In this document: positions 6,928 to 28,842 of the stretch, one piece after another
Numbering within the stretch: the first letter of the stretch is position 1
Layout of the letters: every line of letters begins with the position of its first letter
From: Oscillospiraceae bacterium
GTDB taxonomy: Bacteria > Bacillota > Clostridia > Oscillospirales > Acutalibacteraceae
DNA length: 48,587 nt
Reading direction: 5' to 3'
Assembly (NCBI GenBank): GCA_022763825.1
Contig: JALEQX010000004.1
Span: forward strand, 1 to 48,587
The notes under the pieces: model-generated
The model's database searches: none
What the model was told of the DNA's origin: nothing
What the model saw: only the letters and a program-made list of their open reading frames with translations
Program-made: the position numbers and the translations under genes

Positions 6928-6982
6928 TTTACAATAATGAAATTTTGTGATAAACTTGAGAAGTTCACGGATATATGTGAAC
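6928..6982 (+). promoter_or_regulatory. Toxin promoter and 5' stem-loop, module 1
   Basis: TTTACA-17-TAAACT (6928-6956) is followed by a perfect hairpin GTTCAC/GTGAAC (6963-6982) at the predicted RNA 5' end. The same arrangement, with a different but still paired stem, is present in modules 2 and 3. Confidence 0.65.
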
Positions 6983-7208
6983 CCCGGAGTTACCTATAAA
7001 CGGTAGGCGGTTTGCCCTTTTTATCTGTTAAGAGGGCGAAAACCCTCTTATTTTTGATAAGGGGGTGATGCTTGTGACTGAATCAGTTATTATTTTAATG
7101 TTAATAATTGTTATCCTTTACATAGCAAAAAAATAACCGCCCGATAAAAAACCCAAGCGGGCGGTTATAAACCAATGCTGGGCGAAACCGTCTGTCCGGT
7201 AACTCCTT
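6963..7208 (+). ncRNA. Structured toxin mRNA, module 1
   Basis: The predicted transcript folds by long-range pairing. GGAGTTACC near 6986 pairs with GGTAACTCC at its end near 7198-7206, and CGGTTTGCCC pairs with GGGCGAAACCG. Between them lie a hairpin AAGAGGG/CCCTCTT just before the ribosome binding site and the stem ATAACCGCCC/GGGCGGTTAT after the toxin stop. All four pairings recur in the other two copies despite sequence changes, including G-U exchanges, so the structure itself seems conserved. Confidence 0.7.
7074..7136 (+). CDS. Type I toxin-like hydrophobic peptide, module 1
   Basis: This 20-residue peptide starts at GTG, 8 bases after GGGGG. An ATG six bases upstream is too close to the ribosome binding site. 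The middle is almost entirely Ile/Leu/Val (VIILMLIIVILYIA) and the end is Lys-Lys, as in single-span membrane toxins of type I systems and small holin-like toxins. The last codons lie over the terminator of an antisense RNA. Two homologous peptides sit at 20914-20988 and 28659-28733, with a shared hydrophobic pattern and identical start spacing. Toxicity is inferred from the layout. Confidence 0.7.
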   Translation: MTESVIILMLIIVILYIAKK

Positions 7209-7210
7209 GC
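7126..7210 (-). ncRNA. Antisense antitoxin RNA, module 1
   Basis: A minus-strand promoter (TTGACA-17-TATAAT, 7217-7245) starts an RNA near 7210. Terminator arms at 7159-7168 and 7133-7142 are followed by seven U, which lie opposite the AAA-AAA codons of the toxin. The RNA of about 85 nt is fully complementary to the 3' end and 3' untranslated region of the toxin mRNA. Confidence 0.75.
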
Positions 7211-7216
7211 ATTTTT

Positions 7217-7245
7217 ATTATAATGGTTTTTTCAGATTTTGTCAA
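7217..7245 (-). promoter_or_regulatory. Antitoxin promoter, module 1
   Basis: Perfect TTGACA and TATAAT with a 17-base spacer on the minus strand. It is much closer to consensus than the toxin promoter, as expected for an excess antitoxin RNA. Confidence 0.8.
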
Positions 7246-7268
7246 TACTTACGTTTCGTAAAATTATA

Positions 7269-7308
7269 ACAGGGCTTTGGCATTTTACGCTCAAAGCCCT
7301 GTTTTTTT
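7269..7308 (+). terminator. Rho-independent terminator
   Basis: ACAGGGCTTTG pairs with CAAAGCCCTGT and is followed by seven T. It is placed to end read-through of the toxin mRNA. Confidence 0.75.
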
Positions 7309-7322
7309 ACACAGACATTTTT

Positions 7323-7450
7323 TGAATGGGAATACGTTGTATTCCGGGGGTAAAGGCAGAAAATTTTAAATATGATTCTGCCGGCGGAAACCCGCAGATT
7401 TCATATTGCCGACGCAGATTTATTACCGATAAAACCGCAAGTCTCATGCG
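7323..7450 (-). repeat. Module-associated ~130-bp repeat, copy 1
   Basis: Read on the minus strand it begins GCATGAGACTTGCGGTTTT and contains AATATGAAATCTGCGGGTTT-like and CTGCCTTTACC blocks. It ends with an imperfect palindrome (GGAATACAACGTATTCC). Diverged copies lie at 21195-21322 and 28863-28990. Each copy is within 80 bp of one toxin module. No conserved reading frame is seen across copies. Confidence 0.7.
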
Positions 7451-7527
7451 GGAAGATACTGCGTCTCAATTTGAATTTTCGCAATTATTTAAATTTGATT
7501 ATCATTCATAATCCTATGAACTCTTTT

Positions 7528-7556
7528 CTGCCCGCTGACCGCTAATCACTGTTTCG
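7528..7556. repeat. Partial REP-like repeat
   Basis: CTGCCCGCTGACCGCTAATC matches the G/C arm of the composite repeat. It contains the stop codon of the M28 peptidase gene. Confidence 0.55.
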
Positions 7557-8802
7557 CGCCGTTATCGAACATCTCCAGTACCTTAACGCTTGCCGCAAAG
7601 CACTTTGCCAGACCCTCTTCGTTCATGTTGTCGTACGAATCGCGTCTCGTATGGTAATAGCTTTCGAGCTTATGGTTAAGTCCCGTAACGCCCGTAGCTC
7701 TGAAGCCCGCCTGAGCAAACGCCGCCGAATCCGTCGCTCCGCCGAGAGGGGGAACCATGCCTTTAAGACAGTGAATGTCAAGCTCCGCGCACGCCTCCAT
7801 AAACAGATCGGAAACGTCTTTATCGGCCGCAACGGTACCGTTCAGGTCACGGTAGTTTGTCATGAGATATTTGGGGTCGTGAATTGTATCGTATGAGAAA
7901 ATAAACGTGGGAACGTCGTCAAATTCGCCCTTGTGCGCCTCGCACCACGCCTTTGCTCCGCGAAGCCCCGCTTCCTCGGAGCCGGTAAGAACCACGCCTA
8001 CCTCCGTGTTTTCAAGCTCGATTCCGGCGTCCTTCATATATTTGAGAATCGCAATACCCATATAGCATCCCGAAAGATTGTCGTTCGCGCCGTCAACGAC
8101 TCTTTTGTAGTTTACCATAAAATAAAGACCTGCAATAAACGGAACGAAGAGAAGTCCCCAAAGTCCGGCCTTAACAACAGGGTCGGAGATATCGGCGGCA
8201 GCAAATGCTATTCCGTTCTTCGCCATATATATAATTGAAATAATAATATAGTAAAGAGCGCCGACTCCGCACAATATGGCGTGACCCTCAAAGCCGACTC
8301 CGCCGAGCGCGTAGTTTACGGGCCACTCCCATGCCGCGTCGGGATGACCGTTGAATATGATGCGTCTCTTTGTTTCGCCCGTACAGTTCTTTATCGCAGT
8401 AACGTTATGACCCGTTTTCTCTTTGAAAAAACGGTCGACGGTTTTCTTATAAAGACCGAACTCGAGAAACGCGAGCGTAAGTCCCGCGACGATAAGAATT
8501 ACAGAAGCGAGCGGGAAGAAGAAAAACAATACGACAGCCGCAAGCACAAATGTAAGCGTGAAAAAAAGCCAGCCGTAGAATGCGCCGGGGTTCTCCTTAA
8601 ACGACTCTACGTCCGCTCTCTCGCAGCCGCAGTCGTTTTTAAGAACGTCCGCCATGTACTCGCACGCCTTTTTCTCGCCCTCGCTGCCGGGGCTTCTCTT
8701 GCCGAACGTCTTGATTATATGGGTTATTTCCTTAACCATATACGACGCGGCGTCTTTCTGCTTGGCTATAATTGATTTGAAATCAACTGTTTTTTCCGAC
8801 AT
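7546..8802 (-). CDS. M28-family metallopeptidase with inserted membrane segments
   Basis: This 418-aa protein is a zinc aminopeptidase-like enzyme. The metal/catalytic set is visible: His153 (NGHPDAAWEW), Asp241 (DGANDNLSG), Glu276-Glu277 (TGSEEAG), Asp305 (SYDTIHD) and His384 (YYHTRRD). The peptidase fold is interrupted by two pairs of hydrophobic segments (about 76-95 with 98-117, and 178-196 with 212-231). The enzyme should therefore sit in the membrane, with the active site probably at the membrane face. There is no signal peptide. AGAGGTG lies 8 bases before the ATG. The gene stands alone. Confidence 0.85.
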   Translation of the reverse strand: MSEKTVDFKSIIAKQKDAASYMVKEITHIIKTFGKRSPGSEGEKKACEYMADVLKNDCGCERADVESFKENPGAFYGWLFFTLTFVLAAVVLFFFFPLASVILIVAGLTLAFLEFGLYKKTVDRFFKEKTGHNVTAIKNCTGETKRRIIFNGHPDAAWEWPVNYALGGVGFEGHAILCGVGALYYIIISIIYMAKNGIAFAAADISDPVVKAGLWGLLFVPFIAGLYFMVNYKRVVDGANDNLSGCYMGIAILKYMKDAGIELENTEVGVVLTGSEEAGLRGAKAWCEAHKGEFDDVPTFIFSYDTIHDPKYLMTNYRDLNGTVAADKDVSDLFMEACAELDIHCLKGMVPPLGGATDSAAFAQAGFRATGVTGLNHKLESYYHTRRDSYDNMNEEGLAKCFAASVKVLEMFDNGAKQ

Positions 8803-8825
8803 TGTAAAACACCTCTAAGTAAGTA

Positions 8826-8880
8826 ATGAGAATCAGACCGGGGTTCGGTCGGGAAGAACGACTCTGATTATTACTATATC
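8826..8880 (-). promoter_or_regulatory. Hairpin in the leader of the M28 gene
   Basis: AATCAGA at 8830 pairs with TCTGATT near 8873, and an inner GACCG/CGGTC hairpin sits between them, just upstream of the M28 ribosome binding site. No known riboswitch class was recognised. Confidence 0.3.
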
Positions 8881-8936
8881 ATATTTCAAAGCATAATTTA
8901 TTTTGAGTAAATTGATAAATTATTAAAATTATTATT

Positions 8937-10676
8937 TTAAGTATACATTTTATACATATTTGCATAGATTCCGTTTTTATTTAACAATTCTTCATGCGTT
9001 CCGCTCTCCGCAATCCCGTCGGGAGTTATGACGAGAATTTTATCCGCGTTCTTAACGGTCGTCAGTCTGTGCGCTATCGTCAGCGTCGTTCTGCCCTTTG
9101 ACAGTCCTTCGAGCGAGAGCTGAACCGCGCGTTCGCTCTCGTTGTCAAGTGCGCTCGTAGCCTCGTCGAGAATAAGTATCGGAGGATTTTTCAGAAACGC
9201 TCTCGCTATCGACAGCTTCTGCTTCTGACCGCCGGAGAGCTTGACTCCGCGCTCGCCGACGTACGTATCGTAGCCGTCGGGCATTGAACGTATAAATTCG
9301 TCTGCACCGGCATAAACGGAGGCTTTTATGATTTCCTCGTCGGACGCATCGGTTTTTCCGTAGGCGATATTGTCCCTGACCGTACCCGAAAAAATGTAAA
9401 CGTCCTGCTGAACAACGCCGATATGCTCTCTTAACGACGTCAGCGTATAATTTTTTATATTGACTCCGTCAACGGTTATTTCGCCGCCGACAGGCTCGTA
9501 AAAACGCGGAATCAGACTGCAAAGCGTAGTTTTTCCTCCGCCCGACGGGCCGACAAGAGCGATATTCTGCCCCGCGCTTATTTTAAGACTTATATGCGAC
9601 AGAACGTCGCCGTTGCCTGTTTTATAAGAGAAAGTCACGTCTTTGAATTCAATGTCTCCGCGCACGTCTTTCATTTCGACGGCGTTTTTTTCATCCGTTA
9701 TCTCGGGTTCCTCGTCCATTATTTCATAAAATCTCTCAATACCGGTCATTCCGCGGTTGAACTGATCCATGAATTCAACGATTCTCTTCACCGTCGAAAT
9801 GAGCGTCGAAACATACATTAAATAGACGACGAGATCGGGAGCTGTTATCGAGCCTTTTATTATAAACAACGCACCTGCGGTGACGACGGTTATATACAAA
9901 AGCCCGTCGAAAAACCCCTCTGCCGCGTGAAAGCTTGCGAGAGCCGTATATATTTTATGCTTTATATCGAGTATCTTCCCGTTTCCGTCGTCAAAACGAG
10001 CCTGTTCTCTTTTTTCATTGGCGAACGACTGAACTACCCTTATGCCCGACAGACTGTCCTCGGTCACGGCGTTCAGTTCTCCTATTTTGACTCTCGATTC
10101 GCGGTTGCCCTGTCTCATTTTCGAATTAAAATACGATAAAAATACGCACATCACCGGGATAATTGCGAATATTATAAGCGTCAGCCATACGTTCATTGTA
10201 GACAAAATACAGAAAAACGCGATAAATTTAACGCCCGCTATAAAAAATTCCTCCGGGCAGTGGTGCGAAAATTCCGTTATATCAAATAAATCGTTGGAAA
10301 GTCTCGACATCAGCGTGCCGACCTTTGCCTCGTCATAAAACGAAAACGACAGCTTCTGTAAATGTGCGAACATGTCTCTTCTCATATCGGTTTCGATTTT
10401 CGCGCCCATTATGTGACCGACGGACGACATATAGTAATTCGCCGCCACGCTTATAATTTTTATAATAAAATAAATTGCCGCCAGCTTTAAAACGTAGCTT
10501 ACCGTAAGCGAGGCGAGGTCGTTTATTCCCCTGTCGGTTATGCTTCTTACAAGCAGAGGCAGAATAACATCGCCCGCCGTCGACATACCCGCACAGAACA
10601 GGTCGAACGCCACGGTCTTTCGGTATTTTTTATAATACGGAGAAAATTTCCGCATCAGTTTTATATTTTCGCTCAT
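8937..10676 (-). CDS. ABC exporter, fused permease and ATPase
   Basis: This 579-aa half-transporter has an N-terminal six-helix ABC transmembrane domain type 1 (about 15-310) and a C-terminal nucleotide-binding domain. The latter shows Walker A GPSGGGKTT near 373, signature LSGGQKQKLS, Walker B ILILDEATSALD and the switch His in IAHRLTTV. It belongs to the MsbA/BmrA-like multidrug/lipid exporter group and probably acts as a homodimer, since no partner gene is adjacent. The start chosen is the ATG at 10676 after GGTGAT. An earlier in-frame ATG at 10733 adds 19 residues from AT-rich promoter-like sequence and is unlikely. Confidence 0.9.
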   Translation of the reverse strand: MSENIKLMRKFSPYYKKYRKTVAFDLFCAGMSTAGDVILPLLVRSITDRGINDLASLTVSYVLKLAAIYFIIKIISVAANYYMSSVGHIMGAKIETDMRRDMFAHLQKLSFSFYDEAKVGTLMSRLSNDLFDITEFSHHCPEEFFIAGVKFIAFFCILSTMNVWLTLIIFAIIPVMCVFLSYFNSKMRQGNRESRVKIGELNAVTEDSLSGIRVVQSFANEKREQARFDDGNGKILDIKHKIYTALASFHAAEGFFDGLLYITVVTAGALFIIKGSITAPDLVVYLMYVSTLISTVKRIVEFMDQFNRGMTGIERFYEIMDEEPEITDEKNAVEMKDVRGDIEFKDVTFSYKTGNGDVLSHISLKISAGQNIALVGPSGGGKTTLCSLIPRFYEPVGGEITVDGVNIKNYTLTSLREHIGVVQQDVYIFSGTVRDNIAYGKTDASDEEIIKASVYAGADEFIRSMPDGYDTYVGERGVKLSGGQKQKLSIARAFLKNPPILILDEATSALDNESERAVQLSLEGLSKGRTTLTIAHRLTTVKNADKILVITPDGIAESGTHEELLNKNGIYANMYKMYT

Positions 10677-10744
10677 GATATCACCGTAAACATTAATAAT
10701 AAATATTTTACCATAATATCTGTTCGGATTCAACCGAAAAAGTC

Positions 10745-10773
10745 TTTACTTTAATGCGGGGATAATGTATAAT
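10745..10773 (+). promoter_or_regulatory. Sigma-A promoter of the mannosidase operon
   Basis: TTTACT-17-TATAAT, 40 bases before the ATG at 10814. Confidence 0.65.
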
Positions 10774-10813
10774 TTTTATTAACTATACGATTTATTTTTA
10801 AGGAGTCAACAGG

Positions 10814-12598
10814 ATGGCAAATGTTATAAAGTTAAAACCGCACGTTGCTAGATTTATAAAACTTTATGAATTAAACGACCCCGCGGTACCCGCCGGGCTT
10901 AAGGAGAAAAAGCCCGTTAAGCCCGATTTAACGAAAATCGAGTACCCGCTCCCCGTTAAAAAGCGCGACTTTACTTGCTTCGACGAGTGTGACGGCATAT
11001 TCTGGTACGGAAGCGAATACGGTCTTGTAAGATACGACGAAAACGCCGAATTCGACTACGATAAAATAATGTATTTCAGCGCGCACAGGGATTTAAAGGA
11101 CAACCATGTAAAAAGCGTGCTTGCCGACAGGGACGGCGTATGGGTTATGACCTCGTCCGGCGCGTCGAGAATCGATATGAAAACGATTACATGCGAGCAG
11201 AAAGCTAATATTCTTCTCGACGAATGCGTGAATATAGTCAGCAGAATGGGCTTCGTCAGTCAGAGGAATCTGCGCGTGCCGGGAGATATCTCGACTCCGG
11301 AGAAATTTGCGGTCTCCGACAACGACGGCGGATTTACCGCGGCGTTCTGCATGGGCGAGCTTATGCATTACGATATATTGAGAAAAACAAAGGGCGAGGA
11401 CGACCCCGAGACAAAGAAAATCAAGGATATTGCCGTCAAATCGCTTGAGGCGTGCCTGCTTCTTGCGTACATTCCCGGCAGAGCCGACGGCTTTATTGCA
11501 AGAACATTTCTGACGCCCGACGCTCCCATACCCGACGACGGTATTTTCATAAGAAGAACGGGGGACAAATCCGTTGTTCTGAACACGACATTCGCAGAGC
11601 ATAAGGGACTCGTCGGCATGGAGATAGATTCGCCCGACCCGATTCCCGAAAGACTCAGACGAGTTTACCGCGACGCGGGATATTCGGACGATAACCTCGT
11701 TTACAAAGCCGATACTTCGAGCGACGAAACGACTCTTCACATGATGAATATATGCTTTGCTCACAAGATAATCGGCGGACAGGACAAAGAGCTTGACGAT
11801 ATAATGATGACGGCGGTCGAGCGTTTTGTCGACCACGTTATAGACAACGATTTTGAATTCGTCGACTTCCACGGCGAGCCTACAAGCTGGGCAAAGTGGA
11901 GCCCGCGCTACTTTTCCGAGGGTCTCGGATGGGTCGACAGCTGTCTTAACAGCGCCGAGGTCATGATGTACATAAGCATGGCGCAGTATCTGTTAGGCGA
12001 AAATAAAAAGAGAACCGACGCGTACAATCATCTTATCGAAATCGGTTATCCCGACCTTACGGCGAAACACTACGACCGTTCGCTGCTTGCGGGCAACGCA
12101 ATGAAGTGCGACGTTATCGAGGATATAATGTTCGGCGATCACATGCTCGTTACGATGTCGTATTTAGGACTTTTCAAAACCGAGAAGAACGAGGAACTGA
12201 GAAAGAAATTCAAAGCCGGCTACATGTCGTGGATAAACACCTCGATAGGCAGAGAGCATCACCCCGTTTACGACATTCCGTTCATGGTTTCGTGTCCCGA
12301 GGAGGACGTCGACACCGACAAGCTCGCGATGTGGTTCTACCGTTTCAATACGAGCACCCTCGCCTCGGGCGTTTCGCTGACCTCGCGTTACGATATAGCA
12401 AAAAAGCTGTACCGCGCAGGCTATGCGGAGACTTCAATACTTCTGCCCCCGGACGAGAAATTTATTTCAAAATACGACAGAAATCCGCTTGAATATAAAA
12501 ACGAGGATTCATCCGGAAACAAAACGGTCGAATCGTGCGCACAGTATACGCTTGCATACTGGATGGGCAGATATTTCGGTATTATAACGGAAGAGTAA
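10814..12598 (+). CDS. Unrecognised 594-aa protein, propeller-like start plus helical domain
   Basis: I do not recognise the family. Residues about 55-140 resemble one to two blades of the two-component-regulator propeller type (WYGSEYGLVRYD, then DNHVKSVLADRDGVWVMTSSG). The rest looks like a helical toroid with conserved-looking acidic/aromatic patches: DNDGGFTA, SSDETTLHMM, DFHGEPTSWAKWSPRYF, GWVDSCLNSAEVM. That composition is common in carbohydrate-active (alpha/alpha)6 enzymes. There is no signal peptide, so it should be cytoplasmic. AAGGAG precedes the ATG. The GH38 gene starts 12 bases after its stop, so the two form one operon, and a role in handling a mannose-containing glycan is inferred only from that context. 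Confidence 0.75.
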   Translation: MANVIKLKPHVARFIKLYELNDPAVPAGLKEKKPVKPDLTKIEYPLPVKKRDFTCFDECDGIFWYGSEYGLVRYDENAEFDYDKIMYFSAHRDLKDNHVKSVLADRDGVWVMTSSGASRIDMKTITCEQKANILLDECVNIVSRMGFVSQRNLRVPGDISTPEKFAVSDNDGGFTAAFCMGELMHYDILRKTKGEDDPETKKIKDIAVKSLEACLLLAYIPGRADGFIARTFLTPDAPIPDDGIFIRRTGDKSVVLNTTFAEHKGLVGMEIDSPDPIPERLRRVYRDAGYSDDNLVYKADTSSDETTLHMMNICFAHKIIGGQDKELDDIMMTAVERFVDHVIDNDFEFVDFHGEPTSWAKWSPRYFSEGLGWVDSCLNSAEVMMYISMAQYLLGENKKRTDAYNHLIEIGYPDLTAKHYDRSLLAGNAMKCDVIEDIMFGDHMLVTMSYLGLFKTEKNEELRKKFKAGYMSWINTSIGREHHPVYDIPFMVSCPEEDVDTDKLAMWFYRFNTSTLASGVSLTSRYDIAKKLYRAGYAETSILLPPDEKFISKYDRNPLEYKNEDSSGNKTVESCAQYTLAYWMGRYFGIITEE

Positions 12599-12610
12599 GG
12601 AGAGAACAGA

Positions 12611-15887: not shown

Positions 15888-15892
15888 AAAAC

Positions 15893-15938: not shown

Positions 15939-15993
15939 GGGGGGTTATTTACGGGTTAGGTCTATATCGACATCACCGTTCGTATTTAAGGGG

Positions 15994-19561: not shown

Positions 19562-20770
19562 ATGCAGAGTAATTTTAAATCCTTACATACCGAGTCATTT
19601 TTAAAAAAAGATTCTGACTCCGGCATATTTTTAAAACAGTATCAGCTTATACAAAATACCGATACCGATGAAATTTCCGCCGGTCTTGTATTTGAAAATA
19701 TATCGGACAAAAGCGTTTCATCGGCGGATATCCGCGTTAAATACATCTGTGCCGGCGAGGAAAAGGCGAAGGAATTTACCGCCGAAATTCTCGAGGGCGA
19801 ACCCGGCAAGGTCTGCCCGGCAAAAGAACTTTATTCTCTCGGCTCCGGCGAGGTTTCCGACGTTTCAATAGAAATATTAAGCGTCAATTACGGCGAGGTT
19901 AACAAAAAGCCCCGTCCCCAGGTTTTATCGGTTCAGTCCGAGGGTACGGGCAAAAAGAAGGGCAGTAAGAAACGCGTGATTATTATCGTTCTCGTAATTA
20001 TCGCAGCCGTATGCGCCGTCGCCGGCATTGTACTTCTCGTCACTCCCGATTCCGGTGAAAAGCCGACCGGCATCGGCGCCGTTACCGGCAGGGGCGACCC
20101 GTCGTATGCCGAAACAACCGATAATAACAAAAATGCCGAAACCACCGTTCCGGATGCAAAATCTGCGGGCGGTCACGATTTGGCGGAGTCGGGACAATCT
20201 GTTTCCGTTTCCGCTCTTCCCGATGTTCTGTCGTCATTTTTAAACGGGCATTTTTATATAAGCGGTAAAATCTTTTCCGCGTCGACCGGCACGACCGATA
20301 CGTTTACGCTTGCCGTTGACGGGTCGAATCATTTCATGACCGAGGACAAAAACGGCGTTATAATAGGCGTTTGCAGCAACAGCGGTAAGAATTATTACGT
20401 AAATGTCAAAAAGTCAACGTACCTCGAGGTTACGAACGAGATTATGCAGACTCTCGGCATGACCGCGGACGACTTTAAACTTAAAATATTTGATATGTCG
20501 CTTGTCAAGGATTACAGTCTTTATGCAGCGACGGTTGACTCCGAGGCGGGATTCTGCCTTGACGTAACGTACTCCGACGGGTATAAGGACAAGGTTTATT
20601 ATGTCAATGATAATGTGGTTCAGATAAATGCGTACGACGCACAGTCGAACCTTATAGAGAGCATTATATGCGATAAATTCGACTCGAAGATACCCGATGA
20701 CATGAATGGCGTCGAGGCGTATAAACAGGTAGATTCGTATGAGGAATTTTTTAATTCATTGACCCAATAA
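19562..20770 (+). CDS. Single-span membrane protein with extracellular lipoprotein-like domain
   Basis: This 402-aa protein of unknown function has a cytoplasmic beta-rich domain at about 1-125 (FLKQYQLIQNTDTDEISAGLVFENIS). A lysine-rich stretch and one transmembrane helix follow at about 138-162. A Thr/Asn/Glu-rich linker leads to an extracellular domain at about 220-390 (FYISGKIFSAS, LAVDGSNHFMTEDKNG, YVNVKKSTYLEV), whose strand pattern recalls LolA/DUF4412-like folds. No catalytic motif is visible. GGTGAT is the ribosome binding site. The domain order, with the N-terminal domain inside the cell, would suit a sensor coupling cytoplasm and surface, but that is speculation. Confidence 0.65.
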   Translation: MQSNFKSLHTESFLKKDSDSGIFLKQYQLIQNTDTDEISAGLVFENISDKSVSSADIRVKYICAGEEKAKEFTAEILEGEPGKVCPAKELYSLGSGEVSDVSIEILSVNYGEVNKKPRPQVLSVQSEGTGKKKGSKKRVIIIVLVIIAAVCAVAGIVLLVTPDSGEKPTGIGAVTGRGDPSYAETTDNNKNAETTVPDAKSAGGHDLAESGQSVSVSALPDVLSSFLNGHFYISGKIFSASTGTTDTFTLAVDGSNHFMTEDKNGVIIGVCSNSGKNYYVNVKKSTYLEVTNEIMQTLGMTADDFKLKIFDMSLVKDYSLYAATVDSEAGFCLDVTYSDGYKDKVYYVNDNVVQINAYDAQSNLIESIICDKFDSKIPDDMNGVEAYKQVDSYEEFFNSLTQ

Positions 20771-20804
20771 ACAATAATTTAACCTCGGTAAATTATTGTT
20801 TTGC
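20768..20804 (+). terminator. A/T-only hairpin starting at the stop codon
   Basis: The TAA stop begins AAACAATAATTTA, which pairs with TAAATTATTGTTT and runs into TTTT. It lies directly before the antitoxin promoter of module 2. Confidence 0.6.
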
Positions 20805-20809
20805 GGGTG

Positions 20810-20838
20810 TTGACAAATTGTTTATTCTCATATATAAT
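20810..20838 (+). promoter_or_regulatory. Antitoxin promoter, module 2
   Basis: Perfect TTGACA-17-TATAAT on the plus strand, opposite to the toxin gene. Confidence 0.8.
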
Positions 20839-20844
20839 ATAAGT

Positions 20845-20924
20845 ACCGGGAGCTATCAGATAGACGGCTTACCCTAACGGATTAAAAAATAACCGCCGAG
20901 GTGAAGAGGGCGGTTATTTTTTTT
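20845..20924 (+). ncRNA. Antisense antitoxin RNA, module 2
   Basis: Predicted RNA of about 80 nt. It contains GGGAGCTATCAGATAG, then the terminator stem ATAACCGCC/GGGCGGTTAT with eight U, which overlaps the last toxin codons on the minus strand. Confidence 0.75.
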
Positions 20925-20988
20925 CTTTACAACAAATTGTAACTATGATGATCATAACTATTGTTATGTATATTATAGCCTCTGCCAT
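20914..20988 (-). CDS. Type I toxin-like hydrophobic peptide, module 2
   Basis: This 24-residue peptide starts at ATG, 8 bases after GGGGG. After MAEA it is Ile/Val-rich (IIYITIVMIIIVTI), followed by Cys-Cys and the tail KEKK. The ITIVMII stretch is shared with the module 3 peptide. It should form one membrane helix. A plus-strand antisense RNA covers its last codons. Confidence 0.7.
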   Translation of the reverse strand: MAEAIIYITIVMIIIVTICCKEKK

Positions 20989-21075
20989 AAGCTCCACCCC
21001 CTTATTAATAAGAGGGCGAAACGCCCTCTCAAATAAAAGGGCAAAACCGCCTACCGTTTATAGATAACTCCCGGA

Positions 21076-21102
21076 TCCGCAGATATTTCTGCGGACTTTT
21101 TT
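21076..21102 (+). terminator. Plus-strand terminator, also the toxin 5' stem-loop
   Basis: TCCGCAGATATTTCTGCGGA followed by a T-run on the plus strand. The same palindrome is the 5' stem-loop of the module 2 toxin mRNA on the minus strand. Confidence 0.6.
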
Positions 21103-21131
21103 ATTTTACTGCAATAATAGTTTTTTGTAAA
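21103..21131 (-). promoter_or_regulatory. Toxin promoter, module 2
   Basis: TTTACA-17-TAAAAT on the minus strand, identical in boxes and spacing to module 3. Confidence 0.7.
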
Positions 21132-21194
21132 GGCTGTTTAGAAAGATTTTTGACAAAATACAGCAAGTTTTTTTGCACTTTATAATAAATTTAA

Positions 21195-21322
21195 CATGAG
21201 ACTTACGGTTTTATCAATAATAAATTTGCGTCAGCAATATGAAATTTCCGGGTTTTTGAAGGCAAAATCATAATTAAAAATCTCTGCCTTTACCCCGGGA
21301 AACAATGTCTTCCCCTACATAA
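21195..21322 (+). repeat. Module-associated ~130-bp repeat, copy 2
   Basis: Shares ATGAGACTTACGGTTTTATC, GCAATATGAAATTTCCGGG and CTCTGCCTTTACCCC with copy 1 (opposite strand) and ends in GGGAAACAATGTCTTCCC. It lies 64 bp from the module 2 toxin promoter. Region 20771-21403 holds no other gene. Confidence 0.7.
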
Positions 21323-21364
21323 AGAATGTTTGCGCCTTTAATAAATTATTATTTTTCATAAAAA

Positions 21365-21394
21365 TTTCGGCGGATTCGTATGAATCCGCCGAAA
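21365..21394 (-). terminator. Rho-independent terminator of ldh
   Basis: TTTCGGCGGATTC pairs with GAATCCGCCGAAA. A T-run follows on the minus strand. Confidence 0.75.
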
Positions 21395-21403
21395 ATATTG
21401 TTG

Positions 21404-22351: not shown

Positions 22352-22589
22352 GTACAATCATCTCCTGCTTGTTAATATTTTAACAATTCGTCGTCAATAA
22401 ATCAACTTATATTGCGTTTAATAATTAAATTCTACTTTTTTTATAAAAATTCATATTTTATTTATAAAAATTTATACACTGAGATAGTTTTTAACAAAAA
22501 AAATATGTTGAGATATTTTTTAGATTATGATAGACTATTATAAAAGAAAAAATAAATTTTTATTTAATAAATAACGGAGTGGTAATAAT

Positions 22590-23516: not shown

Positions 23517-23522
23517 AATAAT

Positions 23523-23575
23523 TAATCAATTTTCGGCGGACGGCATCTTTATGTCCCCGCCGCTTGATTTTTTAA
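23523..23575 (+). terminator. Terminator-like hairpin
   Basis: ATCAA and CGGCGG pair with CCGCCG and TTGAT, then six T. Confidence 0.5.
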
Positions 23576-23585
23576 CGGTGATACT

Positions 23586-24455: not shown

Positions 24456-25579
24456 AGAGTACCGAACCTCCGTATTTAAAACACCTTTTTTCACTCGCGT
24501 CAAAAAGCAGAACTCCGCTGTCCGGCACGCTCGAAATTACGCCGAGATGCAATTTAAACTGCCGTATGTGCTATATTCATACGCCGGACTGCAAGGAAGC
24601 TGAAAAACGCGAAATGCCGAAGGAAAAAATATTCGGCATATTGGACGAACTGCAAAAGGCGGGAACGCTTCTTCTGCTGATAACGGGCGGTGAACCGCTC
24701 ATCCGCGCGGATTTCAGGGATATTTATATTAAAGTAAAAGAACTCGGAATTTCGGTGTGCGTAAACACGAACGGTACGCTGATAAATCGTGATATTATAA
24801 ATTTATTTAAAGAATACCCGCCCGCGAGGGTCAACGTCACTCTCTACGGCGCGAACGGTGAGACGTACAAGAATGTTACCGGCGTTTACTCTGCATGCGA
24901 AAAGGCATACGCGGGAGTCGGCATGCTTCTTGACGCCGGAATTGCGGTAAAACTTAATATGAGCATTAATCCGCAGAACGTCTGCGATATTAAAAAGGTT
25001 TATAAATTTGCACGTGAACACGATTTATTCATAGAGGGCGCAAGCTACATGTTCCCGCCTGCGCGTTCGGGGCGTGAATTTTCGGATGGCGACAGGATGA
25101 CTCCCGAGATGTCCGGCGTTATCGCCGCCGAGTGCGAGAGACTTGTGTACGACAGTGAGCATTACAGAATCAGAGCCGAAGCCGTCGGTTCGCTTGCGCG
25201 CGTCGAGGGCGGTCTTATATCGGGCTGTTCTGACGAGAGCGGTGAGAAAATAACGTGCCGTGCGGGTACGACATCGTACTGGATATCGTATGACGGAAAA
25301 CTCTCGCCGTGCGGAATGATGAACGAGCCGTACGAGGATTTATTGAATTCTCCGTTTATCGAGGCGTGGAATAAATTAGGCGGAAAAATCGCGGAAATCC
25401 GTCTGCCCGCAGAGTGTTCGGCATGTAAATACAAACCGATATGCTCCGTGTGCGCCGCATCGTGCAAGGCGGAGACGGGTCGGTTTGATATTGTTCCCGA
25501 ATATCAGTGCAGAAGAACGCGGTCGTTTTATCTTGAAAATATAAATTATTTAAGGCAGGCGGTAAAAGAGGATGAGTAA
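24452..25579 (+). CDS. Radical SAM/SPASM peptide maturase-like enzyme
   Basis: This 375-aa protein has the radical SAM motif C33-x3-C37-x2-C40 (CNLNCRMC), then GGEPL and NTNGT as expected for the SAM-binding barrel. It ends in a cysteine-rich SPASM region (CRAGTTSYWISYDGKLSPCG, then CSACKYKPICSVCAASC and a final YQCRR). SPASM members bind auxiliary Fe-S clusters and modify peptide or protein side chains. With PqqD immediately downstream and an HprK-like gene upstream, a ribosomally made peptide is the likely substrate, but none is evident nearby. Heme d1-type and AhbD-like enzymes share the fold and cannot be excluded. Confidence 0.85.
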   Translation: MKSTEPPYLKHLFSLASKSRTPLSGTLEITPRCNLNCRMCYIHTPDCKEAEKREMPKEKIFGILDELQKAGTLLLLITGGEPLIRADFRDIYIKVKELGISVCVNTNGTLINRDIINLFKEYPPARVNVTLYGANGETYKNVTGVYSACEKAYAGVGMLLDAGIAVKLNMSINPQNVCDIKKVYKFAREHDLFIEGASYMFPPARSGREFSDGDRMTPEMSGVIAAECERLVYDSEHYRIRAEAVGSLARVEGGLISGCSDESGEKITCRAGTTSYWISYDGKLSPCGMMNEPYEDLLNSPFIEAWNKLGGKIAEIRLPAECSACKYKPICSVCAASCKAETGRFDIVPEYQCRRTRSFYLENINYLRQAVKEDE

Positions 25580-25847
25580 ATATAAAATTTCCGATTCTAT
25601 TGCGTTACGGGACATAATGGGCGAGAGTGTGCTCGTCCCGATTAAGGAGATTGAGGGCTTTAACGGCATTTACGCGCTCAACCCCACGTCGAGAATTATT
25701 TACGACTGTATCGCCGAGGGTAAGGATTCTGACGATGCCGTTAATGCGATATTAAAAGAATATGACGCCGAGAGACAGGACGTCGAAAAGGACGTCATGG
25801 AATGTATCGACGATATGGAGAAGAAAAAAATAATTTATAAGGTATAA
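25572..25847 (+). CDS. PqqD-like peptide-binding protein
   Basis: This 91-aa protein has the winged-helix PqqD/RRE pattern: an N-terminal beta hairpin (SIALRDIMGESVLVPI), the LNPTSRIIYDCIAEGKD helix, and a C-terminal helix pair rich in Glu/Asp/Lys. Such proteins present precursor peptides to radical SAM enzymes. The start overlaps the end of the radical SAM gene by 8 bases and lacks a separate ribosome binding site beyond AGAGG, so translation is coupled. It is the last gene of the cluster. Confidence 0.8.
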   Translation: MSKYKISDSIALRDIMGESVLVPIKEIEGFNGIYALNPTSRIIYDCIAEGKDSDDAVNAILKEYDAERQDVEKDVMECIDDMEKKKIIYKV

Positions 25848-25857
25848 TTTTTTTTCT

Positions 25858-25911
25858 GATCACTGCCCGCTGACTGCTGAAAATAATAATCTGCCCGTCG
25901 GATTATTGTTT
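25858..25911. repeat. Composite REP-like repeat, partial copy
   Basis: CACTGCCCGCTGACTGCTG is followed by AATAATAATC/GATTATTGTT. It probably ends the PqqD transcript. Confidence 0.6.
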
Positions 25912-25912
25912 G

Positions 25913-25941
25913 TTGACAAATCGCTTTATTGATTTTATAAT
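25913..25941 (+). promoter_or_regulatory. Consensus sigma-A promoter
   Basis: TTGACA-17-TATAAT in front of the oxidoreductase at 25976. Confidence 0.8.
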
Positions 25942-25975
25942 TTTAAGTAACATATATTGTATTGGAGGTTTACCG

Positions 25976-27157
25976 ATGCCCAATAAAATTAAACTCGGAA
26001 TTATCGGAGTAGGAAACATGGGAAGCAGTCATATAAAGAATTATACGGACTCGAAGCTTCCCGAGGTTGAGATAACCTGCGTTGCCGATATCAACCCGGC
26101 AAGACTGGAATATGCGAAAGAGCAGATTCCGTCCGTTGCCTGCTTTGACGACGCTTCTTCGCTTATCAAAAGCGGACTGTGCGAGGCGGTTCTCATTGCG
26201 ACTCCGCACTATTCGCACCCGCCGATTGCGATTGAGGCACTTAATTCGGGACTCCACGTTATGAGCGAGAAGCCCGCCGGCGTTTACACAAAGCAGGTTC
26301 GCGAGCTTATTAAGGAAGCCGACAAACATCCCGAGCTTACATACGCGATAATGTTCAATCAGCGCACGAACTGCGTTTACAGAAAAATTAAGGAGCTTAT
26401 TTCGTCCGGCGATTACGGCGAGATTAAGCGCGTAAGCTGGATTATCACCGACTGGTACCGCACTCAGGCATATTACAATTCCGGCGGATGGCGCGCCACT
26501 TGGGCGGGCGAAGGCGGAGGCGTTATGCTCAACCAGTGTCCGCACCAGCTTGACTTATGGCAGTGGCTTTGCGGTATGCCCTGTAAGATTAAGGCCGTAT
26601 GTCACGAGGGCAAATGGCACGATATAGAGGTTGAGGACGACGTAACGATTTACGCTGAGTACCCCAACGGCGCGACGGGCACATTCATCACCACGACGGG
26701 TGATTACCCGGGAACGAACAGACTCGAAATAACGCTCGACAGAGCGAAAATCGTATGCGAGCACGACGGCGAAAAAAATGTTTTCACCATTAAAATGTGT
26801 GAGCTTGCAGAAAATATCAGCGATAATTTAAAGAACTGCCCCGAAGGATTCGCGGATATTAAATGCGAATGGAAGGACGTTGAAACCGACGGCGAAAACG
26901 AACAGCACGTCGGCGTTGTCAACGCGTTCGCGGCTCATCTTTTAAGGGGCGAACCCCTTATCGCCGACGGCAGAGAGGGCATAAACGGACTTACCATTTC
27001 CAACGCGGCATTTTTGTCGTCATGGCTTGACAAGACGGTTGAGATTCCGTTTGACGAAGAGCTTTACTACGAAAAATTACAGGAGAAAATTAAAAATTCA
27101 ACCTATAAAAAGACCGTGGTTGAGCAGGTTCAGTCTGATATGAGTTCGACGTTCTGA
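25976..27157 (+). CDS. Gfo/Idh/MocA-family oxidoreductase
   Basis: This 393-aa NAD(P)-dependent sugar/cyclitol dehydrogenase-type protein has GVGNMGSSHIKNY as its Rossmann motif. The SEKPAGVY segment (about 99-106) carries the conserved EKP lysine, and the C-terminal alpha/beta domain has GGGVMLNQCPHQLDLWQW, with the His/Asp pair expected in the active site. The substrate is not determinable. A sugar-phosphate isomerase-like protein follows 350 bp later under its own promoter, and the pair is typical of inositol or rare-sugar pathways. GGAGG lies 7 bases before the ATG. An earlier in-frame start at 25910 would include the promoter and is rejected. Confidence 0.87.
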   Translation: MPNKIKLGIIGVGNMGSSHIKNYTDSKLPEVEITCVADINPARLEYAKEQIPSVACFDDASSLIKSGLCEAVLIATPHYSHPPIAIEALNSGLHVMSEKPAGVYTKQVRELIKEADKHPELTYAIMFNQRTNCVYRKIKELISSGDYGEIKRVSWIITDWYRTQAYYNSGGWRATWAGEGGGVMLNQCPHQLDLWQWLCGMPCKIKAVCHEGKWHDIEVEDDVTIYAEYPNGATGTFITTTGDYPGTNRLEITLDRAKIVCEHDGEKNVFTIKMCELAENISDNLKNCPEGFADIKCEWKDVETDGENEQHVGVVNAFAAHLLRGEPLIADGREGINGLTISNAAFLSSWLDKTVEIPFDEELYYEKLQEKIKNSTYKKTVVEQVQSDMSSTF

Positions 27158-27170
27158 TTTTTATTTTTAA

Positions 27171-27216
27171 AAAAGCCGTAAACCGCGATTTTTAAACGGT
27201 TTACGGTAATTTTTTA
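27171..27216. terminator. Bidirectional terminator
   Basis: GCCGTAAACCG pairs with CGGTTTACGG. T-runs follow on both strands, serving the oxidoreductase and the small minus-strand ORF. Confidence 0.75.
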
Positions 27217-27318
27217 TTCATTATTAAATAATTCACTCTCCGGACTTAAAAGTTTTACGGTAAACGAGTATTTTTTGACGTCTTTTTCTTCTGTTATCCG
27301 CTCTTTAACCTCGGGCAT
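27214..27318 (-). CDS. Small acidic/basic peptide, 34 aa, unknown
   Basis: ATG at 27318 is preceded by GAGGAG at good spacing. The peptide is rich in Glu and Lys, with the core KKYSFTVKLLSPESE, and the stop merges with a terminator. A good ribosome binding site and a matching terminator support a real gene, but its family is not recognised. It has no cysteines, so it is a weak candidate for a radical SAM substrate. Confidence 0.45.
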   Translation of the reverse strand: MPEVKERITEEKDVKKYSFTVKLLSPESELFNNE

Positions 27319-27339
27319 AATAAATTCTCCTCGACTGAT

Positions 27340-27441
27340 TATGATTTATTACTGTCTGTTATTACGTAATTTCTAACCACTGCCCGCTGCCTGCTGTCCA
27401 TTGCAATAATTTATTGCGTGCAGCGCGGTAAATTATTGTTT
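27340..27441. repeat. Composite REP-like repeat
   Basis: It contains TATTACGTAATTTCTAACCA, CTGCCCGCTGCCTGCTGTCC and a hairpin AATAATTTA/TAAATTATT, in the same order as the first copy at 138-282. The minus-strand small ORF (27214-27318) and this repeat occupy the gap 27158-27503. Confidence 0.75.
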
Positions 27442-27467
27442 ACTGTATTGAAATTATGATATATAAT
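27439..27467 (+). promoter_or_regulatory. Sigma-A promoter
   Basis: TTTACT-17-TATAAT, overlapping the end of the REP-like repeat. Confidence 0.6.
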
Positions 27468-27503
27468 ATGTATATATATTTATTTATATCGGGAGTGATT
27501 AAA

Positions 27504-28280
27504 ATGAAAAAACCTGTCATGGGTATACAGCTTTACACATTAAGGGATTACATAAAAACGGCGGAGGATTTTGATTCGACGCTCGAAAGACTCGAAAAGG
27601 CGGGCGTGCGCGACGTTCAGATTTCCGCGATAGGCGATATTGCGCCCGAAGTACAGCGTGAAATTCTCGATAAACACAACATGCGCGTGTGCGTTACGCA
27701 TAAACCGCTCGAGTCGATTCTCGGCGACGTCGACGGCATGATTGCTCATCACAGGACGATAGGATGCGATGCAATCGGGCTTGGCTGGATGCCGGAAAAC
27801 GAGCGCGAAAACCGCAGGGGACTTATTGATTTTATTAAAAGACTCGAAAATGCGGCGAAAAAATATAAGGAAAACGGTATTTCGTTTAACTATCATAACC
27901 ACGATTTTGAGTTCAAACCCTTTGACGGCGGGGAGAATGTTATGGATGTTATATTATCGGAATCCGATCCCGGTCTTTTTAATTTTATTCCGGACGTTGC
28001 GTGGATAAATTACGCGGGATTTGACCCTTGCGAGGTCTTGAAAAGGATGAAGGGCAGAGTCAAGGTTGTTCATTTTAAGGATTATGTAAGGGACTGTGAG
28101 GGAAAGAAGCACTTTGTTCCGCTCGGCGAGGGCGTTGTCGACCTTGAAAAATGTTACGATACGGTCTGCGAGCTCGAAATTCCGTACGTAATGTACGAGC
28201 AGGACGACGAGTGGCCGGACGGCGACGCGTTCAAGGCGTGCGAAATATCGTGGGAGTATATGAAGAAGCTTCTGAAATAA
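27504..28280 (+). CDS. Sugar phosphate isomerase/epimerase-like TIM-barrel protein
   Basis: This 258-aa protein is of the xylose isomerase-like (AP endonuclease family 2) fold. It begins PVMGIQLYTLRDY. Metal-ligand positions occur in NYHNHDFEF (about 137-145), in PDVAWINYAG with Asp near 168, in KVVHFKDY and in GEGVVD. It is probably cytoplasmic and metal-dependent. The partner oxidoreductase upstream suggests sugar or cyclitol catabolism. The start follows GGGAGTG; sixteen upstream in-frame codons cover the promoter and are rejected. Confidence 0.82.
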   Translation: MKKPVMGIQLYTLRDYIKTAEDFDSTLERLEKAGVRDVQISAIGDIAPEVQREILDKHNMRVCVTHKPLESILGDVDGMIAHHRTIGCDAIGLGWMPENERENRRGLIDFIKRLENAAKKYKENGISFNYHNHDFEFKPFDGGENVMDVILSESDPGLFNFIPDVAWINYAGFDPCEVLKRMKGRVKVVHFKDYVRDCEGKKHFVPLGEGVVDLEKCYDTVCELEIPYVMYEQDDEWPDGDAFKACEISWEYMKKLLK

Positions 28281-28343
28281 TTTACTGCGGATAAATGATT
28301 TCGGCGGGTTGGTAAATATTGTTGTACTTTATCAAAAAAAGTC

Positions 28344-28399
28344 TTTACAATAAAAGCTTATTGCGGTAAAATAAAAAAGTCCGCAGAAATATCTGCGGA
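28344..28399 (+). promoter_or_regulatory. Toxin promoter and 5' stem-loop, module 3
   Basis: TTTACA-17-TAAAAT (28344-28372) precedes the hairpin TCCGCAGAAATATCTGCGGA (28380-28399). Both match module 2. Confidence 0.7.
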
Positions 28400-28402
28400 T
28401 TA

Positions 28403-28562
28403 GTGCTCTGTAATACCTAAAAGTTTACATCTGATTGCAAGTATGGCTGTGTTTAACAAGAATCGAGAACGCAGGCAGGCTTGTCGCCTGTCAAGTTTGA
28501 GGACGCAGTTAAACACTGTCATACGCCGTAATGCTTGTGAAGTTTTAGGTGTTACAGAGTAC
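28403..28562. mobile_element. 160-bp MITE-like hairpin flanked by TA
   Basis: Terminal inverted repeats of about 20 bp (GTGCTCTGTAATACCTAAAA, two mismatches in the other end) are followed inward by a second long stem (GTATGGCTGTGTTTAAC with GTTAAACACTGTCATAC). A small apical hairpin GGCAGGC/GCCTGTC sits inside. TA lies on both sides (28401-28402 and 28563-28564), as after an IS630/Tc1-type insertion. Modules 1 and 2 lack it at the same position, so it is an insertion between the 5' stem-loop and the rest of the toxin leader. It encodes no protein. Confidence 0.65.
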
Positions 28563-28564
28563 TA

Positions 28565-28805
28565 TGGAGCTATCTATTATAACTATAACGGTAGGCGGTT
28601 TGCCCCTTTTATTTAAGAGGGGAATGATCCCTCTTATTTAAGTAAGGGGGTGATGTCGATGTCGGAAGCAATCCTTTACATAACAATTGTTATGATTATT
28701 CTTGCCATCCTCTATTTTTCGGCAGAAAAATAACCGCCCTGACGCCCTAATGTCGGCGGTTATTTATAACCATTGAGGGGCGAACCGTCTGTCGGATAGC
28801 TCCCC
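28565..28805 (+). ncRNA. Structured toxin mRNA body, module 3
   Basis: AGCTATC near 28568 pairs with GATAGCT near 28795. CGGTTTGCCCC pairs with GGGGCGAACCG, and AAGAGGG/CCCTCTT precedes the ribosome binding site, as in the other modules. Confidence 0.65.
28659..28733 (+). CDS. Type I toxin-like hydrophobic peptide, module 3
   Basis: This 24-residue peptide starts at ATG, 8 bases after GGGGG. It has MSEA, then ILYITIVMIILAILYF, and ends SAEK. An ATG six bases earlier is too close to the ribosome binding site. It is the closest relative of the module 2 peptide and should form one membrane helix. Its last codons overlap the antitoxin terminator. Confidence 0.7.
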   Translation: MSEAILYITIVMIILAILYFSAEK

Positions 28806-28807
28806 GT
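28725..28807 (-). ncRNA. Antisense antitoxin RNA, module 3
   Basis: Starts after a consensus minus-strand promoter. Terminator arms ATAACCGCC at 28755-28763 and 28730-28738, with a U-run opposite the last toxin codons. About 82 nt. Confidence 0.75.
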
Positions 28808-28813
28808 ATTTAT

Positions 28814-28842
28814 ATTATAACGGCGAAATTGTTTTTTGTCAA
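28814..28842 (-). promoter_or_regulatory. Antitoxin promoter, module 3
   Basis: Perfect TTGACA-17-TATAAT on the minus strand. Confidence 0.8.

What the first reader, a model, noticed from the sequence alone, without database searches (positions are those of the whole stretch)
6928..28842. Three diverged type I toxin-antitoxin modules with antisense antitoxin RNAs
At 6928-7245, 20810-21131 and 28344-28842 the same modular layout recurs: a TTTACA-17-TAAAHT-like sense promoter, a 5' stem-loop, long-range 5'-3' pairing, a ribosome-site-proximal hairpin, a 20-24 residue hydrophobic peptide, and a perfect TTGACA-17-TATAAT promoter on the other strand. The antisense RNA of about 80-86 nt ends at a terminator that overlaps the last toxin codons. 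Known type I systems such as txpA/ratA have this 3' overlap. The peptides and RNA sequence are unlike any family I can name with certainty, and compensating base changes support the structure.
Basis: partly seen in the sequence, partly recalled or inferred. Interest (0 to 1): 0.85.

Follow-up and report, generated by a model that had tools for sequence, protein, structure and literature searches.

The report
Clostridial bsrG-like toxin–antisense RNA cassettes
Each of these three spots holds a tiny gene for a membrane peptide, probably a bacterial self-toxin, apparently locked by its own RNA folding and by a short antisense RNA; they belong to a large group of such cassettes in Clostridia built on the same RNA plan as a studied Bacillus system.

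Summary
The window has three copies of one module: a sense mRNA whose ends pair, a sequestered ribosome site, a 22-26-residue hydrophobic peptide, a perfect antisense promoter, and an antisense terminator over the last toxin codons. The same genome gives 13 strong matches to a model of the antisense RNA (11 with leader and ORF, 2 orphans); 87 of 291 sampled class genomes match. The peptide is under purifying selection (8 copies tested). The 5'-3' helix is supported by compensatory change (0 of 10,000 permutations in each of three locus sets). Terminators just past the antisense promoter (25 of 61 modules) suggest that the mRNA runs through it. On the same chassis other Clostridia carry Pfam Hol_Tox peptides (8 of 38 scanned), and B. 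subtilis bsrG, a proven type I toxin mRNA, shows the same plan. The window peptides match no curated family over cut-off, and profile comparison shows no homology to Hol_Tox; toxin-family membership is not shown, the RNA plan is. Best reading: a divergent, multi-copy, bsrG/SR4-like type I toxin-antitoxin group with exchangeable peptides. Toxicity and transcripts are untested. My own relay-switch idea was not supported by folding.

The parts
6928..6956 (+). module 1 sense (toxin) promoter TTTACA-17-TAAACT
6962..6983 (+). module 1 5' stem-loop
   Evidence: paired bases differ in a compensating way from module 2 and other own-genome copies (read by eye)
6985..7017 (+). module 1 leader: 5' arm (6985-6994) and core CGGTAGGCGGTTTGCCC (7001-7017) that pair with the 3' arm
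7030..7067 (+). module 1 hairpins predicted to sequester the SD AAGGGGGTG
7068..7136 (+). module 1 toxin ORF, 22 aa (alternative start GTG 7074)
7128..7210 (-). module 1 antisense RNA, about 83 nt (ends inferred from promoter and terminator)
7133..7168 (-). module 1 terminator hairpin of the antisense RNA, overlapping the toxin stop codon
7180..7206 (+). module 1 3' arm of the sense mRNA, pairs with the leader
7217..7245 (-). module 1 antisense promoter TTGACA-17-TATAAT
7268..7308 (+). module 1 candidate distal terminator of the sense mRNA
   Evidence: read by eye; module 1 is not among the 25 of 61 hits
21103..21131 (-). module 2 sense promoter TTTACA-17-TAAAAT
21075..21097 (-). module 2 5' stem-loop
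21039..21072 (-). module 2 leader: 5' arm (21063-21072) and core (21039-21056)
20914..20988 (-). module 2 toxin ORF, 24 aa
20882..20917 (+). module 2 terminator hairpin of the antisense RNA over the toxin stop codon
20848..20874 (-). module 2 3' arm of the sense mRNA
20845..20922 (+). module 2 antisense RNA (ends inferred)
20810..20838 (+). module 2 antisense promoter
20766..20801 (-). module 2 candidate distal terminator of the sense mRNA
   Evidence: read by eye; module 2 was not in the set
28344..28372 (+). module 3 sense promoter TTTACA-17-TAAAAT
28378..28400 (+). module 3 5' stem-loop
28401..28564 (.). multicopy MITE-like repeat inserted in the leader of module 3; palindromic ends, TA at both edges
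28566..28606 (+). module 3 leader: 5' arm (28566-28574) and core (28589-28606)
28653..28733 (+). module 3 toxin ORF, 26 aa (or 24 from the second ATG)
28730..28763 (-). module 3 terminator hairpin of the antisense RNA over the toxin stop codon
28777..28803 (+). module 3 3' arm of the sense mRNA
28725..28807 (-). module 3 antisense RNA (ends inferred)
28814..28842 (-). module 3 antisense promoter

Best explanation
Each site is a type I toxin-antitoxin cassette built on the RNA plan of Bacillus subtilis bsrG/SR4. The sense promoter makes an mRNA that (inferred) reads through the stop-codon hairpin and the antisense promoter to a distal terminator. Its leader pairs with its own 3' end in a long helix (supported by compensatory change) and its SD lies in a stable hairpin (predicted), so the mRNA is silent by default. 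A strong promoter on the other strand makes an ~80-nt antisense RNA that covers the 3' arm and ends in a hairpin over the last toxin codons (promoter and terminator conserved; RNA not seen). The antisense RNA would bind the 3' end of the mRNA and mark it for RNase III decay, as txpA/RatA and bsrG/SR4 do (by analogy). If the antisense RNA is lost or outrun, and the mRNA is processed or refolds, the peptide is made, enters the membrane and stops growth (inferred). The cassettes are multi-copy, differ in place or presence between sister species, and the chassis carries quite different peptides in different lineages.
For: Peptide selection: 8 copies, 20 codons, pN/pS 0.34 against 1.04 and 1.79 in the other frames. 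5'-3' helix: 56 distinct loci (65 of 72 usable), matched -18.7 against mismatched -10.6 kcal/mol, 0 of 10,000 permutations; 23 of 28 loci found without the leader in the query, -40.7 against -28.6, 0 of 10,000; 12 of the 23 Hol_Tox matches, -49.8 against -35.3, 0 of 10,000; the three sets share no locus at 97% identity over 250 nt. Sense mRNA spanning the module: terminator just past the antisense -35 in 25 of 61 modules against 2 of 60 in the next 75 nt and 1 of 61 on the other strand. Antisense promoter: TTGACA in 65 of 70 scorable loci, perfect -10 in 50. SD closed: 0.041 against 0.255 with shuffled leaders, 65 loci. Same chassis with Hol_Tox peptides: 8 of 38 scanned (of 64 distinct) match PF16935 at E <= 0.01; 4 of 10 exceed the curated cut-off. 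bsrG mRNA has the same plan: leader:3' arm -42.8 (0 of 1000 shuffles), leader:post-stop -20.3 (2 of 1000). Distribution: 87 of 291 class genomes, the window's own included. bsrG/SR4 facts from passages of PMC6562991 and PMC7430163.
Against: No transcript or toxicity data. Window peptides reach no Pfam or NCBIfam cut-off (only a sub-threshold PsbT match, E 0.16, for module 3), the own genome has no Hol_Tox match, and profile comparison with Hol_Tox peptides gives 1.7% probability. Folding shows no state in which the SD opens in most loci, so how the toxin is ever made is unexplained. BsrG has 38 aa and SR4 180 nt; here 22-26 aa and ~80 nt. The leader:stop complementarity shows no covariation within the Clostridial set (3977 of 10,000 permutations as good). 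Neither module 1 nor 3 is among the 25 terminator hits (module 2 was not in that set). L041 lacks the 3' arm and five loci lack an exact TTGACA.
Confidence: 0.87

Rival explanations
1. The peptide is a non-toxic small membrane regulator (as ComI, a competence inhibitor) and the antisense RNA merely tunes it.
For: The NCBIfam ComI model gives weak matches, all below its cut-off of 55 bits, to 4 of 10 scanned chassis peptides from other Clostridia (best 26.0). PepG1, a type I toxin model, likewise matches 3 of 10 weakly. Toxicity is not tested here.
Against: Eleven copies with leader and ORF in one small genome, with divergent peptides and presence/absence between sister species, fit selfish or addiction cassettes better than a dedicated regulator; the closest RNA plan, bsrG, belongs to a proven toxin.
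Confidence: 0.1
2. A mobile or repetitive structured-RNA element (MITE-like) in which the ORF is incidental.
For: Multicopy and intergenic in the window: module 3 with flank is absent at the collinear site in sister species G001, with a 12-bp direct repeat at the window edges; module 2 lies on the other side of a gene there. Orphan antisense parts exist.
Against: Codon-level purifying selection only in the toxin frame; an ORF behind an SD in 72 of 72 loci (mostly pattern-selected) and 23 of 28.
Confidence: 0.05
3. A cis-regulatory attenuator with leader peptide controlling a neighbouring gene.
For: Terminator hairpin just after a short ORF, alternative leader hairpins.
Against: Module 2 lies in a different place relative to its neighbour gene in the sister species and module 3 is absent there; a conserved opposing promoter has no role in attenuation.
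Confidence: 0.02

Closest known systems
bsrG/SR4 of Bacillus subtilis prophage SPbeta (TxpA/BsrG family)
   Same: Leader pairs with the mRNA 3' end, leader complementary to the post-stop region, distal sense terminator; SD sequestered, antisense RNA interacting at the 3' end, helix P1 contacted by SR4, small membrane toxin (paper passages).
   Different: BsrG 38 aa and SR4 180 nt against 22-26 aa and ~80 nt here; no sequence similarity of the window peptides shown; the antisense terminator here contains the toxin stop codon; several copies scattered in one genome.
Pfam Hol_Tox (PF16935) loci of Clostridia
   Same: Same layout and 5'-3' helix with other, mutually compensating letters in the 12 of 23 matches examined; some Hol_Tox peptides sit on the very same CGGTAGGCGGTT chassis.
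   Different: Window peptides fall below detection.
txpA/RatA
   Same: Antisense RNA and toxin mRNA pair at their 3' ends; small hydrophobic toxin (paper passages).
   Different: TxpA 59 aa, RatA 222 nt (paper passage); its locus was not compared here.
AapA/IsoA (Helicobacter pylori) and hok/Sok
   Same: 5'-3' long-distance interaction keeps the full-length mRNA inert, with transient SD hairpins for AapA3 (PMC6733600 passages).
   Different: There the 3' end itself covers the SD; here the SD is predicted closed by local hairpins and the 3' end pairs further upstream.
Fst/RNAII (par)
   Same: Converging transcripts over a terminator hairpin (recalled).
   Different: Fst uses direct repeats giving complementary RNAs (recalled); here the repeats are inverted, so both RNAs begin with alike, not complementary, sequence.

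Membership tests
Type I toxin-antitoxin system | small hydrophobic peptide gene under coding selection | tested here: met
   pN/pS 0.34 in frame; modules 2 and 3 included, module 1 not; mean hydropathy 1.47 to 2.10 for the three window peptides
Type I toxin-antitoxin system | cis-encoded antisense RNA with own promoter and terminator overlapping the toxin mRNA | tested here: met
   sequence level only:
Type I toxin-antitoxin system | peptide toxic, antisense RNA relieves it | not testable with these tools
   needs bench work
Pfam Hol_Tox PF16935 (protein family) | profile match over the curated cut-off | tested here: not met
   no match for window peptides or own genome
Pfam Hol_Tox PF16935 (protein family) | profile-profile similarity to Hol_Tox peptides | tested here: not met
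   probability 1.7%; 5.5% for the MEYY group
Hol_Tox/BsrG RNA chassis | long leader : 3' end helix of the toxin mRNA | tested here: met
Hol_Tox/BsrG RNA chassis | SD sequestered in hairpin | tested here: met
   prediction only:
Hol_Tox/BsrG RNA chassis | same chassis found with Hol_Tox peptides | tested here: met
   8 of 38 scanned chassis peptides (64 distinct in all)
Hol_Tox/BsrG RNA chassis | leader complementary to stop region, with covariation | tested here: inconclusive
   complementary in window, Hol_Tox and bsrG branches but no covariation inside the Clostridial set
txpA/bsrG-type control | RNase III cleavage of the duplex | not testable with these tools
   needs bench work
hok/Sok and AapA/IsoA | SD covered by the mRNA 3' end in the long-distance interaction | tested here: not met
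   the SD pairs with local leader segments in the folds shown; prediction only
Fst/par | direct repeats at both transcript starts (recalled) | tested here: not met
   the repeats are inverted
any Rfam 15 RNA family | covariance-model match | tested here: not met
   gathering, whole window: 0; E up to 5, 3-kb stretches around modules 1 and 3: 4 weak matches, none overlapping the modules

The most novel reading that the evidence does not exclude
The antitoxin RNA is a mimic of the toxin mRNA's own leader: its 5' half repeats the leader's outer arms and its terminator repeats the leader's core, so leader and antitoxin compete for the same docking sites on the 3' half of the mRNA; the leader core, transcribed first, also opens the stop-codon hairpin and makes it a terminator for the antisense direction only. 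The whole is a reusable RNA lock into which Clostridia swap unrelated membrane peptides.
Probability: 0.25. Interest if true: 0.75.

Novelty: new variant of a known kind. Interest (0 to 1): 0.52.

Why it matters
It adds a large group of type I cassettes without an Rfam model (matches in 87 of 291 sampled genomes of the class; 13 and 14 in two sister species) that protein-family searches miss because the peptides are short and drift. It suggests that the RNA lock, not the peptide, is the conserved and searchable part, links it to the studied bsrG/SR4 plan, and supplies a covariance model and many natural variants with which to test how such mRNAs stay silent and how toxins are exchanged.

Tried and rejected
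Relay-switch idea (the 5'-3' helix frees the SD, the antisense RNA closes it): tested by constrained folding on 65 loci; mean SD openness 0.04 nascent, 0.08 full length, 0.04 with the 3' end blocked, 0.03 with the 3' arm scrambled; full length exceeded nascent by more than 0.2 in 7 of 65 and fell below it by as much in 2. 5' trimming left at best 17% of loci open. Not supported by thermodynamic folding.

Leader:stop pairing as a covarying helix: not supported within the Clostridial set. Protein homology of window peptides to Hol_Tox by profile comparison: not found (window against MEYY group 45.7% over 5 columns). Searching phages and plasmids with two Clostridial Hol_Tox-like peptides found nothing.

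Rows dropped: the pattern fixes the leader core, SD and stop motif by construction; tests used other stretches. One search used 65 of 72 loci (7 skipped for lack of the anchor string or cut ends, among them window module 2), then 56 distinct. In 67 of 72 loci the ORF ends at the stop motif; in L013, L020, L023, L032 and L077 it ends elsewhere. One search kept 56 antisense sequences of 72; one search aligned 55. One search used 8 copies of the ungapped MAEA group. One search used 12 of the 23 matches, chosen after 16 were printed; of the four printed but not used, L148 and L158 do not show the layout to my eye, L145 is cut, L157 was left out. One search used 28 of 29 class loci and 23 of those for pairing (L132's ORF is doubtful). 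One search's ORF finder was unreliable for L107-L135 and was replaced. One search scanned 38 of 64 distinct peptides.

Literature: the rows listed by the searches show no paper describing these Clostridial modules; I saw listings, and passages of PMC6563280, PMC6562991, PMC7430163, PMC6733600 and PMC8040213. The library holds only open papers, and the supplement of PMC8040213, which lists thousands of microbiome structured RNAs, could not be read here.
Full report
Observation. The three modules are present as described, with sense promoters, perfect antisense promoters (6 matches of TTGACA-N17-TATAAT in the window, none in 100 shuffles), short hydrophobic ORFs behind strong SDs and an antisense terminator that includes the toxin stop codon. 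Module 2 reads on the minus strand. Module 3 carries a 164-nt repeat, 28401-28564, with TA at both edges; the same repeat matches several contigs of the sister species at 87-95% identity, so it looks like a MITE-like insertion next to the 5' stem-loop.

Same genome. A pattern search and then a covariance model (R1: antisense RNA plus promoter, 55 sequences, 122 positions) found 13 strong matches in the 2.10-Mb genome (E below 1e-11) and two weak ones (E 0.006 and 0.011) on the opposite strand of modules, and 14 in another species of the genus, G001. By leader and ORF finder, 11 of 13 have both and 2 have neither (L087, L090: orphan antisense genes); in G001 9 of 14 have a leader, 8 an ORF passing the criteria (one, L101, probably frameshifted), and 5 have neither. 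Two copies stand in tandem on contig C50.

Elsewhere. The pattern CGGTAGGCGGTT..GGGGGTG..ATAACCGCC gave 61 stretches in the collection of species genomes. By record title 59 of 61 are Clostridia and their kin, many of them animal-gut assemblies, and they include the isolates Eubacterium coprostanoligenes ATCC 51222, Pseudobutyrivibrio ACV-2 and Lachnospiraceae A4 and G11; the other two are titled Veillonellaceae (L024) and Phoenicibacter (L025, a 3-kb contig). Two viral contigs match. With R1, 87 of 291 sampled class genomes match at E <= 0.001, the window's own among them; 72 of 237 good-quality genomes; 60 of 181 genera; 11 genomes show 10-12 matches, 12 being the number of candidates scored per genome. 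In Rfam the window has no match at gathering score, and at E up to 5 nothing overlaps modules 1 or 3.

The peptide is coding. Eight related copies from the two sister species (modules 2 and 3 among them) differ over 20 codons mostly at third positions (183/63/289 differences at positions 1/2/3); pooled pN/pS is 0.34 in the toxin frame, 1.04 and 1.79 in the others. All 72 loci have an ORF behind an SD with mean hydropathy 0.66 to 2.54, and in 67 of 72 it ends at the stop motif (SD and stop motif are part of the search pattern). Of 28 class loci found with the antisense model, 23 have such an ORF.

The mRNA folds back on itself. The leader's outer arm and the region next to the antisense start are complementary and change together: 56 distinct loci, matched -18.7 against mismatched -10.6 kcal/mol, 0 of 10,000 permutations; reverse-complement control -7.6 against -7.3. 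A set found without the leader in the query gives -40.7 against -28.6, 0 of 10,000, control -21.5 against -22.2. One locus, L038, is a chimera with the leader of one type and the 3' half of another, and its helix is weak (-8.5). For the helix to form, the sense mRNA must run through the antisense promoter; in 25 of 61 modules an intrinsic terminator stands on the sense strand within -15 to +60 of the antisense -35, against 2 of 60 in the next 75 nt and 1 of 61 on the opposite strand. Of the window's own modules none is among the 25 (module 2 was not in the set); modules 1 and 2 have a hairpin-and-T stretch a little further on, seen by eye. The antisense promoter is conserved: TTGACA in 65 of 70 scorable loci, with -10 at five or six of six letters in 57 and perfect in 50. 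The SD is predicted closed in nearly every locus and state tried.

What it is. In Lachnospiraceae and others the same chassis carries peptides such as MVTYEELFLFGTLLVSIIALVINITKKK, which Pfam calls Hol_Tox over its cut-off (4 of 10; 8 of 38 scanned match at E <= 0.01). Hol_Tox was sought by profile in 148 class genomes: 20 match, 12 over the cut-off. Several of these loci have the same layout with different, mutually compensating letters: for instance leader AAGGTAATCGG..GCAGGGTGTGGTTGCCACC, stop region ATCACCCTGC, 3' arm GTGGCAACCGCA..CCGATTACCTT; 12 of the 23 matches were tested, -49.8 against -35.3, 0 of 10,000. The proven B. subtilis toxin mRNA bsrG, read from the SPbeta record, has the same plan: leader:3' arm -42.8 (0 of 1000 shuffles), leader:post-stop -20.3 (2 of 1000) and a distal terminator. 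Reviews (passages only: PMC6562991; PMC7430163) report that bsrG mRNA (294 nt) and SR4 (180 nt) interact at their 3' ends, that SR4 contacts the 3' part of helix P1, that the SD is sequestered in 4 bp extended to 8 bp on SR4 binding, that RNase III cleaves the duplex, and that bsrG loci of other Bacillus can encode BsrE/H instead, a precedent for toxin exchange on one chassis. The original structure paper (PMC3834814) is not held. The window peptides themselves reach no family cut-off and hhalign finds no homology to Hol_Tox. So: it works like bsrG/SR4 and shares its RNA plan; membership in the Hol_Tox protein family is not shown.

Mobility. In G001 the genes flanking module 3 are collinear and the stretch about 28311-29069 is absent, with the 12-bp repeat TTCGGCGGGTTG at both edges in the window: an insertion here or a deletion there. 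The orthologue of module 2 lies upstream of the gene 19562-20770 in G001 and downstream in the window. Module 1's site is rearranged in G001. G001:C96 coincides in length and coordinates with contig DJEG01000105 of Ruminococcaceae bacterium UBA5904 (L020; L097), which places the window in that neighbourhood (inference).

Mechanism. Supported by comparison: coding peptide, 5'-3' helix, conserved antisense promoter and terminator. Predicted: closed SD, sense read-through. Inferred by analogy: duplex formation, RNase III decay, membrane toxicity. Unexplained: how the SD ever opens. Because the inverted repeat makes both RNAs start with alike sequence, the antisense RNA resembles the mRNA's own leader; that it works as a competitor of the leader is a hypothesis not tested here.

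Changes on checking: ComI matches corrected to 4 of 10, the direct repeat to 12 bp, the antisense promoter counted, module 2's helix computed, denominators added.

Noticed in passing
7342-7448, 21195-21301, 28866-28990: A second repeat family (85% between the first two) beside all three modules; in sister species G001 it matches about twenty places, a few beside antisense-model matches and the others not near one, so it looks like an independent multicopy repeat.
   Followed up: partly
28401-28564: MITE-like 164-nt repeat with palindromic ends and TA at both edges inside module 3; further copies in G001.
   Followed up: partly
5271-5338 and 5716-5783: Inverted repeats around a small ORF (5380-5715); parts of 5255-5540 match many G001 contigs, mostly above 90%.
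   Followed up: no
34214-34267 and 35560-35613: Two 54-nt repeats, 89% alike and with palindromic stretches, flank a gene that looks like an ATPase (34278-35507).
   Followed up: no
165-255, 27323-27413, 40845-40935: Three copies of a 91-nt intergenic repeat.
   Followed up: no
L087, L090 (own genome); L096, L100, L103, L105, L106 (G001): Orphan antisense genes without leader or toxin ORF: decayed modules or possible trans-acting antitoxins.
   Followed up: partly
L038 minus strand about 6996-7140: Chimeric module: leader of the Hol_Tox (MVTYEEL) type, peptide and antisense part of the MEQETF type, with a weak 5'-3' helix.
   Followed up: partly
L023 5703-5845: Peptide reads through the terminator in frame (..SIKNNRPTP..), so the terminator's AATAACCGCC codes NNRP here.
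   Followed up: no
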